DNA from: Candidatus Lambdaproteobacteria bacterium RIFOXYD2_FULL_50_16
GTDB lineage: Bacteria > SAR324 > XYD2-FULL-50-16
Length of the DNA stretch: 54,579 nucleotides
NCBI GenBank assembly: GCA_001783695.1
Contig: MFNE01000001.1
Location: forward strand, 1-54,579
Direction of reading: 5' to 3'
The position numbers were made by a program, and so were the translations under genes. Below the pieces are notes generated by a model that saw nothing but the letters and a program-made list of their open reading frames with translations, did no database searches and was not told the origin of the DNA. Each line of letters opens with the position of its first letter. The stretch's first letter is position 1. This document shows, in pieces, positions 14,039 to 51,462 of this stretch.

Positions 14039-15835
14039 ATGAAAAAGATTGCCCTTTTTTTAGGTGTTTTGTTTGCCAGTGCTGGCGGGCTATGGGCCTT
14101 TAAGCAGCCTGATCTGGACAAGCTTTTGGCGTCAAAGGTCTGCAACAATTGTGATCTGACCAACGCCGCCATGCAAAACGCCGAGCTGGCTGGCGCAAAT
14201 ATGCGCGGAAGTAATCTAAGTCGGGCCAACCTGATGGGCGCCGACCTTACCAACGCCGACCTAACCGAGGTAAATTACACCCAAACCTACTTCGAAAACG
14301 CCACCTGGCCCAACGGGGAAAAGTGTAAAAAGGGCAGTTTCGGCAAATGTATTACCCTCAATCTGGAGCGAATTTCCAACCAAAAGAACTGTAAAGATTG
14401 CGCTATGCCATACGCATGGCTAGAAGAGGCCTATTTGCAAGGGGCTTTTTTAAAGGGCAGTGACTTTAAAGGTTCCAATCTGCACAAAGCGGTTTTAGTT
14501 AACGCCAACCTTGAGGAGGTTAACTTCACCGAGGCGAACCTGACCAAAGCCAACCTTACTGGTGCCGAGATCAACAAAATCAACATGAATCACGTCAAGC
14601 TTGAAGACGCGATCTGGATCAATGGGGAGAAATGTTTGGCCGGTTCAACAGGTATGTGCCTTACCCAGGCTTGGTTCGACCTGCTTTCTAAAAAAACCTG
14701 CGACGGCTGCGTTTTGATCCGCATCCAAAAACCAGCACTCGATTTGCAGAGCGCCAAGATCAAAGACAGTAACTTCAAGGGGGGGGCCTTTCCAGGGACC
14801 AATTTTGCCAAAGCCGAATTGATCAACTCCGACTTTTCTGGCTCAGACTTAACTGACAGCAATTTTGAAGGCAGTAAACTTAAAAAAACCCGCTTCGCTA
14901 AGGTCAAGTTTGGCAAAACCAATTTCCAGCACGCCAACCTGGAAGAGGTGCGCATCGAAGGGGCTAGTTTAGCTGAATCCAATTTCACAGAAGCTAATTT
15001 TCAACAAGCAGAAATTACGGATTCAGACCTTTCCAAGGGGATTTTTACCAAGGTTGCCTTTAAAGACACCGACTTTTCTAATTCAAATCTAAACCTTTCG
15101 GTGTTCGAAGAGGTCGATTTTGCCAATGTCCGCTTAACCGGAGCAACCTGGATTAACGGGCTAAAGTGTCTGGCTGGGAGCCAGGGGTTTTGTATCACTA
15201 AAAATGTTCAACAAACCTCTGGGCAAAAAACCTGCGCCAAATGCAGTCTGCCCTATGCAAACCTGTCGGCGATTAACCTAGAAAAGGTTGAACTTGCGGA
15301 GTCTTATTTATATCGGGCAAATTTAAGCCGAAGCAACCTGACCGGGGCACGTTTGGACAACGCGGATCTTACCCAAGCCAACCTAGTCAACGCCGACCTC
15401 TCCTTTACCAGCCTAGAGGGTGCCGATTTTTCTGGAGCGTTGTGGCCTGATGGGGTGGTATGCGCGCCTGGCTCCAAGAGTCGCTGTTTAACTGAAACCA
15501 TCACTAAACTGTTTGCAGAAAAAAAGTGCAAAGCTTGTAGTCTGCCTTATGCCAATTTTTCGGGTACCTCTTTAGCTTGGTTCAACTTAAACGGATCTAG
15601 TTTAATCGGGGCGAACCTGACCAAGGCCAACCTGACCGGGGTCTTTTTGGAAAACGTCAACCTAACCAAAGCCAACCTAGAAGGGGCCACCCTGGTATCA
15701 GCCGACCTCACTGGGGCTAGTTTAGAAGGGGCTAATTTAAAAAACGCCGATCTTTCTGGCGCTACCTGGACAAACGGGCGCGTATGTCGCCCTGGCTCTT
15801 TGGGCGAATGCAAACTGCTCGGAGCCCCCAACTGA
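14039..15835 (+). CDS. Exported five-module pentapeptide-repeat protein with Cys brackets
   Basis: A 598-residue protein with a signal peptide (about residues 1-20, cleavage after GLWA), so it acts outside the cytoplasm. The rest is pentapeptide repeats (A[D/N]LXX type), which fold as a right-handed square beta-helix. They are grouped into five modules, each opening with CxxC (Cys at 35/38, 118/121, 221/224, 399/402, 497/500) and closing with a cap of the form W-x-N/D-G-x-x-C-x-x-G-S (closing Cys 96/104, 199/207, 377/385, 475/483, 583/591). CxxC to first cap Cys spans 61, 81, 156, 76 and 86 residues, all one more than a multiple of five, and the next module always begins 22 residues after the cap Cys. 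Cys pairs may form disulfides or bind metal. Function unknown. Confidence 0.9.
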   Translation: MKKIALFLGVLFASAGGLWAFKQPDLDKLLASKVCNNCDLTNAAMQNAELAGANMRGSNLSRANLMGADLTNADLTEVNYTQTYFENATWPNGEKCKKGSFGKCITLNLERISNQKNCKDCAMPYAWLEEAYLQGAFLKGSDFKGSNLHKAVLVNANLEEVNFTEANLTKANLTGAEINKINMNHVKLEDAIWINGEKCLAGSTGMCLTQAWFDLLSKKTCDGCVLIRIQKPALDLQSAKIKDSNFKGGAFPGTNFAKAELINSDFSGSDLTDSNFEGSKLKKTRFAKVKFGKTNFQHANLEEVRIEGASLAESNFTEANFQQAEITDSDLSKGIFTKVAFKDTDFSNSNLNLSVFEEVDFANVRLTGATWINGLKCLAGSQGFCITKNVQQTSGQKTCAKCSLPYANLSAINLEKVELAESYLYRANLSRSNLTGARLDNADLTQANLVNADLSFTSLEGADFSGALWPDGVVCAPGSKSRCLTETITKLFAEKKCKACSLPYANFSGTSLAWFNLNGSSLIGANLTKANLTGVFLENVNLTKANLEGATLVSADLTGASLEGANLKNADLSGATWTNGRVCRPGSLGECKLLGAPN

Positions 15836-16752
15836 TGAACCCAGGCCCCCAACTCTTGATTTTAGCTGCGGGGATTGGTAGCCGCTACGGCGGCACCAAA
15901 CAATTGGGCAATTTTGGCCCCTCGGGGGAATCGTTAATCGAGTATGCATTGTACGACGCGGCCCAAGCCGGATTTTCCAAGGTTTGTTTGGTGATCCGCC
16001 CAGAACTAGAAGAAGCTTTTTTAAGCCGACTTAGCCCCTACCAAGACCTTATCGAAATCACCTATGCCCACCAAACCTTAGCGCAACAATTAGGTGGTTT
16101 TACCCCTCCAAAAGACCGGATTAAGCCTTGGGGCACTGGCCAAGCGGTACTTTGCGCCAAAGACGAAATTACCCAGCCCTTTGCGGTTATTAATGCCGAC
16201 GATTTTTATGGGGCCAAAGCCTATCAAATCATGGGGGATTGGTTGCGCAAGCGAACCCCGACTGAAGCTCGTTACGCATTGCTTGGCTACCCACTAAAAA
16301 ACACCCTCTCCCCACACGGCACCGTCAGCCGAGGGATTTGTGCTCAAGAGGATGACCAGTTGGTCTCCCTTGAAGAACATACCCAGATTAGATATGAACA
16401 GGAGCAGATCTACGACTTTAGCCAAGATCACCCCCGTCCTCTGTCCCATAACACCCCGGTTTCGATGAACTTTTGGGGGTTTACCCCGCTGATTTTTCAA
16501 ACCCTTGAATTGGGTTTTAACCATTTTTTACAAACCCGTGGGGCAGAGCTTAAGTCCGAGTATTATATAACCAGCCCCATAGATAATCTAGTAAAAACCA
16601 ATCAAGCCCAAATTACCTTGCTACCTTGCGAGGAGCATTGGATGGGGGTGACCTACCCAGAAGACAAGCTGGCTTTAGAGACGGGGCTCTTAGAGCTTCA
16701 CCAAAGACGCCAATATCCTAAGACTTTAAAGCCCCTTATTATCCCTGGTTAA
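15835..16752 (+). CDS. Nucleotidyltransferase of the sugar-phosphate type
   Basis: Resembles enzymes that transfer a nucleoside monophosphate to a sugar phosphate. The N-terminal nucleotide loop reads LLILAAGIGSRYGGTKQLG, with GPSGESLIEYALYDA downstream and the metal Asp pair in FAVINADDFYGAKAY. The middle holds a conserved GTVSRGIC segment and PVSMNFWGFTP, seen in the uncharacterised relatives I know rather than in GalU or RmlA, so the substrate is not assigned. The ATG at 15835 overlaps the last base of the preceding stop (TGATG) and has GGAG ten bases upstream, giving 305 residues; the open frame before it is antisense-like extension into the pentapeptide gene. Three bases separate it from ptsN. 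Confidence 0.8.
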   Translation: MNPGPQLLILAAGIGSRYGGTKQLGNFGPSGESLIEYALYDAAQAGFSKVCLVIRPELEEAFLSRLSPYQDLIEITYAHQTLAQQLGGFTPPKDRIKPWGTGQAVLCAKDEITQPFAVINADDFYGAKAYQIMGDWLRKRTPTEARYALLGYPLKNTLSPHGTVSRGICAQEDDQLVSLEEHTQIRYEQEQIYDFSQDHPRPLSHNTPVSMNFWGFTPLIFQTLELGFNHFLQTRGAELKSEYYITSPIDNLVKTNQAQITLLPCEEHWMGVTYPEDKLALETGLLELHQRRQYPKTLKPLIIPG

Positions 16753-16755
16753 CCT

Positions 16756-17214
16756 ATGCATTTTGCAGATTCCTTAGCGCTTGTTGCCATCGACCTGAAC
16801 TTAAAGGCCGATTCCCCAATTGAGGTTTTAGAAGCTTTGGTCCGCTTGGCATCTAAGTCTCATCCCTTTGCTGCGCCAAACCAAATTGTTTCGGTGTTAA
16901 TTGAGCGCGAAAACCTCTCAACTACGGGTATAGGTGGAGGCATCGCGGTTCCGCACTGCAAAACCGAGCAGGCAGACCGGTTAATTATGGCCTTTGGCCG
17001 CGCCCCAGGCGGGGTTGAATTTAAGGCGCTTGATCAAAAACCGGTGCAACTTTTTTTTCTATTATTGGCCCCAATCGAAGCCGCCAATACCCATCTAAAG
17101 GCACTGGCTAAAATCGCCCGATTTGCCAAAGACTCGGCGGTTATTGACTCACTGTTAAATCTGGAAAGTCCACAAGCAGTTCACCAATTTTTGGCAGAAC
17201 AATCAAAGGGTTAA
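16756..17214 (+). CDS. ptsN: PTS nitrogen-type IIA protein
   Basis: A 152-residue EIIA-Ntr domain, a phosphoryl-accepting regulator of the nitrogen-related phosphotransferase system. The phosphorylated His67 lies in GIGGGIAVPHCKTEQ, the most diagnostic segment, and the C-terminal half shows the expected LFFLLLAPIEAANTHLKALA. No membrane segment is present. It is followed immediately by a second, unrelated IIA protein of the mannose type, with stop and start codons adjacent. No EI, HPr or IIB/IIC gene is in the window, so the pair probably signals rather than transports sugar. Confidence 0.9.
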   Translation: MHFADSLALVAIDLNLKADSPIEVLEALVRLASKSHPFAAPNQIVSVLIERENLSTTGIGGGIAVPHCKTEQADRLIMAFGRAPGGVEFKALDQKPVQLFFLLLAPIEAANTHLKALAKIARFAKDSAVIDSLLNLESPQAVHQFLAEQSKG

Positions 17215-17610
17215 ATGGAAGTTAGCCTCTTAGTGATCACCCACGGGTCCTTAGCCCAAGAATTGGTCTCTGTGGCCCAAATGATGTTAGAGCGCCCCCT
17301 TAACGTGCAGGCGGTCTGTCTCGCTTTAAAGGGGAGCAACGCTAAATACGCAGGTCAGGTCAACCAAGCGATCAAAGCGATCCCCGAAGGCAACCGAGTG
17401 ATCGCCTTAACCGATATTTTTGGCGGGACCCCTTCGAATCTCCTTTTGCCATTTCTGCAAAAAGACCGACTAGAAGTGATCACCGGGGTCAATCTGGGAT
17501 TACTTATACACCTATTATCGAGCAAATTAGAAGGCAGTCTTAGCGATATTTGCAATTCGGCCAAACAGGCCGGGCAAGAAGCTATTTTAGTAGCCGGAGA
17601 TTTTTTGTGA
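17215..17610 (+). CDS. PTS mannose-family IIA protein
   Basis: A 131-residue EIIA-Man-type domain. Phospho-acceptor His10 sits in VITHGSLAQEL and the second signature ALTDIFGGTPSN is at about 63-75. It contains no IIB part. In deltaproteobacteria and relatives such isolated IIA-Man proteins often belong to incomplete regulatory PTS systems; here the neighbour ptsN supports that reading, although the partner phosphotransferases are not in the window. Its stop TGA overlaps the GTG start of the following RDD gene. Confidence 0.88.
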   Translation: MEVSLLVITHGSLAQELVSVAQMMLERPLNVQAVCLALKGSNAKYAGQVNQAIKAIPEGNRVIALTDIFGGTPSNLLLPFLQKDRLEVITGVNLGLLIHLLSSKLEGSLSDICNSAKQAGQEAILVAGDFL

Positions 17611-50817: not shown

Positions 50818-51462
50818 ATGACCCTTTTTATAGAATTTTTCCACGATCCCCTTTGCGCCTTTTGTTACATCTTTTCTGCAAGGCTTCGCAGTCTCGTAGA
50901 AGAGATAGAAGGCTTAGAGATTGAGCACCGTGCGTTTGCTTTAAGCGCAGATCAAAACGATTTGATTAGGCGTTATGGCTCAAACCAAGCGGGCAAAGAG
51001 GCGATTTTGAACCAGTGGAAACGCGCTTTAAGCTTAGAGCCTCAAGCACAGATCAACCTGGAATCCATGGCCAAGGCCAGCTTTGATTTTCCCTACTCTC
51101 TGCCTCCTTTGTTAGCCCTAAAGGCCATCGAAAACCAGTTGGGGGCATCGGGGCATTGGGACTATTTTGAGCTTCTACAACAAGCCCATTTAAGCGAAGC
51201 ACGTAATCTAAACGACCCTGAGGTGTTAATCGAGTTGGCGATGGGTCTAGGTGCTAAGCGCAAGCTTTTTATTGAAGACATGGCTACCCCAGATACCTTA
51301 GAACTAGTCGAGGCCGACTTAGAACTAGCTCGAATGTATCAGGTACACGCAGTGCCTAGTTTAGTGGTCGAACGCGGAGAATGGGTGATCAGCGGGGCGC
51401 TTGATCTAAGCGACCTCAAAGCCCGTATTTTAGCCATTCAAAAAGACATTCAAGGAGATTGA
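50818..51462 (+). CDS. DsbA-family thioredoxin-fold protein
   Basis: 214 residues without signal peptide, so probably cytoplasmic. The redox motif is Cys13-Ala-Phe-Cys16 in FHDPLCAFCY, and the cis-Pro loop is in VHAVPSLVVE near residue 180. The insertion of a helical domain between the two matches the DsbA family (FrnE-like or 2-hydroxychromene-carboxylate isomerase-like). Substrate unknown. Its TGA overlaps the cutA ATG. Confidence 0.8.
   Translation: MTLFIEFFHDPLCAFCYIFSARLRSLVEEIEGLEIEHRAFALSADQNDLIRRYGSNQAGKEAILNQWKRALSLEPQAQINLESMAKASFDFPYSLPPLLALKAIENQLGASGHWDYFELLQQAHLSEARNLNDPEVLIELAMGLGAKRKLFIEDMATPDTLELVEADLELARMYQVHAVPSLVVERGEWVISGALDLSDLKARILAIQKDIQGD

What the first reader, a model, noticed from the sequence alone, without database searches (positions are those of the whole stretch)
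14039..15835. Pentapeptide modules with exact 5n and 22-residue spacing between Cys pairs
Five modules, each bracketed by CxxC and a WxNGxxC cap, have CxxC-to-cap distances of 61, 81, 156, 76 and 86 residues, all 5n+1. From the cap Cys to the next CxxC is always 22. So modules grow by whole pentapeptides while the cap is fixed, implying a designed series of square beta-helices locked by Cys caps, exported from the cytoplasm. The function of such a five-block rod is not known to me.
Basis: seen in the sequence. Interest (0 to 1): 0.7.

Follow-up and report, generated by a model that had tools for sequence, protein, structure and literature searches.

The report
Five-bead cysteine-capped pentapeptide-repeat envelope rod
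A little-known group of subsurface and marine bacteria (SAR324) exports a protein built from five square-sided protein coils, each closed at both ends by a pair of cysteines; the five coil lengths stay nearly unchanged across very divergent relatives, suggesting a rigid rod in the cell envelope whose job is still unproven.

Summary
ORF 14039-15835 encodes 598 aa with a Sec-type signal peptide and five modules. CxxC-to-cap-Cys distances are 61, 81, 156, 76 and 86, and every cap-Cys-to-next-CxxC step is 22. A fourth invariant Cys (cap+8) and a 9-residue helix before each CxxC were missed. The proposed refutation fails: orthologs in 8 of 9 other genomes of the family, mostly 41-44% identical, keep 61/81/156/(76 or 96)/86. 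The one length change is 20 residues, a whole coil. 35 of 36 linkers are 22. However, 5n+1 itself only says the pentapeptide frame is unbroken. AlphaFold2 gives five square beta-helices (pLDDT 92.8, pTM 0.76); module 5 superposes on HetL at 0.6 A. No Pfam or PDB entry covers the caps. The closest characterised analogue is the secreted YjbI of Caulobacter, a single beta-helix with a Cys pair at each end. Best reading: an exported, probably disulfide-capped, neutral, rigid scaffold of the envelope. Fold and export are well supported; the envelope-scaffold function is inferred. A DNA-gyrase mimic is unlikely. I call it a new variant of a known kind.

The parts
14039..14098 (+). Sec-type signal peptide, MKKIALFLGVLFASAGGLWA
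   Evidence: Sequence; AF2 pLDDT below 50 only for residues 1-20. No signal-peptide predictor was run.
14099..14350 (+). Module 1: helix 23-32, CxxC 35-38, 12-pentad span, cap WPNGEKCKKGSFGKC
14351..14659 (+). Module 2: helix 107-115, CxxC 118-121, 16-pentad span, cap WINGEKCLAGSTGMC
14660..15193 (+). Module 3: helix 210-218, CxxC 221-224, 31-pentad span, cap WINGLKCLAGSQGFC
15194..15487 (+). Module 4: helix 388-396, CxxC 399-402, 15-pentad span (19 in half the family), cap WPDGVVCAPGSKSRC
15488..15832 (+). Module 5: helix 486-494, CxxC 497-500, 17-pentad span, cap WTNGRVCRPGSLGEC, 7-residue tail
15835..16752 (+). Nucleotidyltransferase-like gene (NTP_transf_3), overlapping the PRP stop codon as TGATG; next gene downstream in all 7 relatives with flanks
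16756..17214 (+). PTS EIIA (PtsN-like), conserved neighbour in 6 of 7 relatives
17215..17610 (+). PTS EIIA-man-like, conserved neighbour in 6 of 7 relatives

Best explanation
The protein is exported by a Sec signal peptide and folds outside the cytoplasm into five consecutive right-handed square beta-helices (12, 16, 31, 15 and 17 pentads, about 23 coils, very roughly 11 nm of coil plus four joints). Each beta-helix is a self-contained domain. A short helix plus a CxxC pair closes the N-terminal end; a W-x-N/D-G-x2-C-x7-C turn closes the C-terminal end. The two Cys of each pair most likely form a disulfide that stops the open coil edges from fraying or aggregating. The fixed 22-residue joint sets a constant geometry between domains, so the whole is a rigid rod. 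I think it works as an envelope scaffold or surface-binding protein in the manner of the secreted PRP YjbI, which lies in the outer-membrane/LPS layer and silences envelope-stress signalling. Shown by computation: module anatomy, conservation, predicted fold. Inferred: export, disulfides (about 0.8), rigidity (about 0.7), envelope scaffold or YjbI-like role (about 0.35).
For: Exact anatomy. Same five lengths in 8 orthologs besides the window protein, one of them split over two contigs. Each module position is one clade across the orthologs, so the array was assembled once and not homogenised (some supports only 70-94). AF2 pLDDT 92.8, pTM 0.76; by my reckoning from the definition of pTM, mutually unplaced modules would give about 0.3, since the largest is about 178 of 598 residues. 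Module 5 matches HetL at 0.6 A over 95 columns, TM 0.74. The caps occur in single-module exported or lipoprotein relatives with 12-74 pentads, so each module is an independent unit. Disulfides: 50 of 64 capped proteins have no Cys outside the pairs; non-CxxC pairs (C-x7-C, C-x8-C, C-x11-C) replace the N-terminal CxxC in some relatives; the genome has a signal-peptide DsbA with CPHC; exported proteins carry an excess of even Cys counts (43 even, 22 odd, against 157 and 202 for cytoplasmic-like ones, p = 0.001). YjbI precedent: PMC12864828. Disulfides in exported or lumenal PRPs: PMC8145042, PMC3842002.
Against: No functional data for any member of this protein family. DsbB and VKOR are undetected in G000, G002 and G005, all 97-98% complete. 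In YjbI the cysteines reacted with maleimide on cells, suggesting free thiols, and were not needed for zinc-induced turnover (PMC12864828). Orthologs lack YjbI's charged C-terminal tail. Coordinates and PAE were not available, so Cys-Cys distances and rod straightness were not measured. The pTM argument is indirect. The conserved neighbours (nucleotidyltransferase, two PTS EIIA) are cytoplasmic and do not point to an envelope role.
Confidence: 0.5

Rival explanations
1. The regularity needs no special explanation: an unbroken pentapeptide frame forces 5n+1, duplication of one domain copies the 22-residue joint, and module lengths are simply inherited. The protein is an ordinary member of an expanded paralogue family.
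For: Hydrophobic position 2 in 97-100% of pentads. Paralogue groups also keep their own lengths (371 in four genomes, 96/71 in three). Modules 2-5 group together (support 88).
Against: A frame does not fix pentad number, yet it is fixed at 41-44% identity. Loop insertions occur in single- and two-module relatives (distances such as 139, 173, 207, 212) but in none of 44 modules of the five-module protein.
Confidence: 0.3
2. The cysteines bind metal. At each of the four joints the cap pair and next CxxC form C-x7-C-x13-C-x2-C, a possible four-Cys zinc site, making the rod a metal-braced or zinc-sensing envelope protein.
For: Four Cys within 26 residues at each joint. No DsbB or VKOR found in three near-complete genomes. 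YjbI is degraded on zinc stress and has reactive thiols (PMC12864828).
Against: Single-module proteins keep both pairs at opposite ends of 3-18 coils, where no four-Cys site can form within a chain. Spacing of the N-terminal pair varies in relatives. The only PDB hit for the joint is a zinc finger at E = 0.16, no better than chance. DsbA and an even-Cys excess are present.
Confidence: 0.15
3. A Qnr/MfpA-like DNA mimic that protects DNA gyrase.
For: Same fold; NCBIfam Qnr and MfpA models match, but far below their cut-offs.
Against: Signal peptide. Net charge of the mature chain -1 (59 K+R, 60 D+E), whereas these mimics are strongly acidic (established knowledge). All below curated cut-offs.
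Confidence: 0.02

Closest known systems
YjbI of Caulobacter crescentus (secreted PRP, PMC12864828)
   Same: Signal peptide, square beta-helix with one Cys pair at each end. An alphaproteobacterial plasmid-borne PRP (Skermanella rosea, L158) has the same C-terminal cap, WVDGRTCAEGSSGDCK.
   Different: YjbI is one beta-helix of a 183-aa protein with a functional charged tail; this is five beta-helices with no charged tail. The YjbI sequence itself was not available to align.
Rfr23 / Rfr32 of Cyanothece and At2g44920 (lumenal PRPs; PDB 2O6W, 2G0Y, 3N90)
   Same: Exported PRPs; Rfr23 has a Cys39-Cys42 disulfide, Rfr32 and At2g44920 a disulfide in the C-terminal cap (PMC8145042); fold matches.
   Different: Single beta-helices; the C-terminal caps of Rfr32 and At2g44920 are two-helix bundles, not the W-x-N/D-G-x2-C-x7-C turn.
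HetL (3DU1) and designed 'beta1' solenoids
   Same: Best fold matches (0.6 A, TM 0.74 to module 5).
   Different: Best sequence matches end before or lack the two-Cys cap; single beta-helix.
Two-module lipoproteins and single-module paralogues in the same genomes (e.g. L002, L101, L058)
   Same: Same CxxC and cap; 22-residue joint; fixed lengths 96/71 in three genomes.
   Different: One or two modules; several are lipoproteins or fused to other domains.

Membership tests
Pentapeptide repeat proteins (PF00805) | At least eight tandem pentapeptides | tested here: met
   Pfam E = 1.2e-82, 11 stretches; 12-31 pentads per module
Pentapeptide repeat proteins (PF00805) | Right-handed square beta-helix | tested here: met
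   AF2 pLDDT 92.8 and Foldseek to HetL, Np275, Qnr; a prediction, not a structure
YjbI-type secreted PRP (PMC12864828) | N-terminal secretion signal | tested here: met
   Seen in the sequence of the window protein and orthologs; no dedicated predictor run
YjbI-type secreted PRP (PMC12864828) | Cys pair at each end of the beta-helix | tested here: met
   All five modules, all complete orthologs
YjbI-type secreted PRP (PMC12864828) | Charged C-terminal tail needed for function | tested here: not met
   Window tail is KLLGAPN; orthologs end within about 10 residues of the last Cys, most within 2
YjbI-type secreted PRP (PMC12864828) | Outer-membrane/LPS location and control of envelope stress | not testable with these tools
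   Needs fractionation and a mutant
Qnr/MfpA gyrase-protecting PRPs | Cytoplasmic, acidic DNA mimic | tested here: not met
   Signal peptide; mature net charge -1; below NCBIfam cut-offs
Known domain covering the cap/joint | Match in Pfam or PDB | tested here: not met
   No Pfam match; one chance-level PDB match

The most novel reading that the evidence does not exclude
The protein is a length-locked molecular ruler or strut of the envelope: five disulfide-capped square helices in a fixed order whose total length, changeable only by whole coils, spans or spaces a layer of the SAR324 cell envelope.
Probability: 0.1. Interest if true: 0.7.

Novelty: new variant of a known kind. Interest (0 to 1): 0.42.

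Why it matters
Secreted pentapeptide-repeat proteins are barely characterised; YjbI is the main one with a role. This family gives a defined capping unit (helix-CxxC ... W-x-N/D-G-x2-C-x7-C) that closes square beta-helices of 12-74 pentads. That is of use for annotation (no Pfam model covers it) and for design of solenoid rods with controlled length. The five-module protein makes a testable case of a natural rod with conserved module lengths.

Tried and rejected
Two cap DNA patterns were miscounted by me and found nothing; the corrected one found 12 caps, 5 in this gene. A tblastn of a whole module against plasmids was swamped by generic pentapeptide repeats. The cap alignment was too variable for a genome-contig scan, so the ortholog alignment was used. 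Face-by-face conservation showed no single strongly conserved outer face. Promoter and terminator scans gave no more than chance. No paper was found on capped PRPs in SAR324.

Full report
WHAT IS THERE. The ORF at 14039-15835 (+) encodes 598 residues. After a typical Sec signal peptide there are five modules. Measured from the first Cys of each CxxC to the cap Cys the distances are 61, 81, 156, 76 and 86; from each cap Cys to the next CxxC it is 22 four times. Each cap has a second Cys 8 residues further on. The repeating unit is therefore: 9-residue helix, CxxC, pentapeptides, W-x-N/D-G-x2-C-x7-C. Mature protein: 20 Cys, all in pairs.

IS THE SPACING MEANINGFUL. The pentapeptide frame runs unbroken from CxxC to cap in every module (hydrophobic position 2 in 97-100% of pentads), so 5n+1 is expected. 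What is not forced is the number of pentads. The window's genome belongs to the SAR324/Candidatus Lambdaproteobacteria group, judged from its named relatives; the record itself is unnamed. Orthologs lie in 8 of the 9 other genomes of the family; the ninth is 68% complete. They keep 61/81/156/(76 or 96)/86 at 62% identity in the nearest and 41-44% in the rest. The loci named largely overlap these genomes and were not counted twice. Of 44 measurable modules (8 complete proteins and one split over two contigs) none breaks the rule; of 36 joints 35 are 22 and one is 21. The only length difference, module 4 with 76 or 96, is 20 residues, one full four-pentad coil; as a single type of difference this is weak evidence (a one in four chance if pentad changes were random). 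Across all capped proteins fetched, 95 of 104 modules are 5n+1 after I removed one fragment that duplicates the window gene (one search lists 99 of 108); exceptions carry loop insertions or, as in L070 and L145, an upstream CxxC taken by the pattern. Pentad number mod 4 takes all values, so the caps do not demand whole coils.

HISTORY. A tree of the cap-flanking residues (69 columns, FastTree, many weak forks) puts each module position in one group across the orthologs: support 94, 70, 100, 93 and 97 for modules 1 to 5; modules 2-5 group together at 88. The five-module array thus predates the family's radiation and has not been homogenised. No match of comparable strength was found in the other families of the class.

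FOLD. AlphaFold2 with 8 sequences gives mean pLDDT 92.8 and pTM 0.76. Helices precede each CxxC (23-32, 107-115, 210-218, 388-396, 486-494). Foldseek of the whole finds HetL, Qnr, Rfr23 and other PRPs; module 5 alone (pLDDT 91.5) matches HetL at 0.6 A, TM 0.74, and Np275 at TM 0.75. The pTM is well above the roughly 0.3 I would expect if modules were not placed relative to one another, which suggests fixed joints; coordinates and PAE were not available to check this.

CYSTEINES. Fifty of 64 capped proteins have no Cys outside the pairs. In relatives the N-terminal pair may be C-x7-C, C-x8-C or C-x11-C, which argues for simple disulfides rather than a zinc knuckle. The genome encodes an exported DsbA with CPHC and exported proteins show an excess of even Cys counts (43:22 against 157:202, Fisher p = 0.001). 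The exported set came from a home-made signal-peptide rule and contains some cytoplasmic proteins, and the n = 2 against n = 1 comparison alone was not significant (p = 0.45). DsbB and VKOR were not found in G000, G002 or G005, though 7 of 10 family genomes have one or the other. How DsbA would be reoxidised there is open.

SURROUNDINGS. The next gene, a nucleotidyltransferase-like protein, starts within the stop codon (TGATG) and follows the PRP gene in all seven relatives with flanks; two PTS EIIA genes and an HD-domain gene follow in six of seven. This points to an operon but not to a function. The own genome has about ten further capped PRPs, some lipoproteins, some fused to other domains.

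DISTRIBUTION. In a survey of 383 genomes the cap profile (E <= 1e-8) was found mostly in SAR324 and in two of about 331 genomes of other groups, only one of which (L212) covers the full cap; only 18 candidates per genome were scored, so this is a lower bound. Named outside cases: Campylobacterota (L069, L070, C-terminal cap only), Skermanella rosea and, with one extra residue in the cap, Tistrella mobilis.

FUNCTION. The closest studied protein is YjbI of C. crescentus: secreted, Cys pair at each end of a square beta-helix, embedded in the outer-membrane LPS layer, repressing envelope-stress pathways (PMC12864828). The SAR324 protein shares the layout per module but lacks the charged tail, so it is not filed as YjbI. 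I infer an envelope scaffold or surface-binding role with about 0.35 probability. A gyrase-protecting DNA mimic is contradicted by the signal peptide and the near-zero net charge.

VERDICT. Observation confirmed, interpretation partly right. A new multi-module variant of secreted, Cys-capped pentapeptide-repeat proteins; moderately interesting, function unproven.

Noticed in passing
L070:241-1680 (Campylobacterales MAG): A di-haem cytochrome-c-peroxidase-like protein carries a C-terminal pentapeptide domain ending in the same two-Cys cap but without an N-terminal CxxC.
   Followed up: no
G000, G002, G005: Three near-complete genomes (97-98%) of the family lack detectable DsbB and VKOR although G000 has an exported DsbA (CPHC); its reoxidation partner is unknown.
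   Followed up: partly
L118, L131, L152, L153: Single-module relatives with CxxC-to-cap distance 371 (74 pentads, 18.5 coils) in four genomes, much longer than any module of the window protein.
   Followed up: no
L023, L024, L029, L032 (own genome): Pentapeptide domains fused to an FGE-sulfatase-like domain, a TPR/YbgF-like repeat region with two capped modules, Sel1-like repeats and a cyclic-nucleotide-binding-like domain; named from sequence by eye, not run against Pfam.
   Followed up: no
window 50818-51462: DsbA-fold protein without a signal peptide (CAFC motif), FrnE-like, matched by PF01323.
   Followed up: partly
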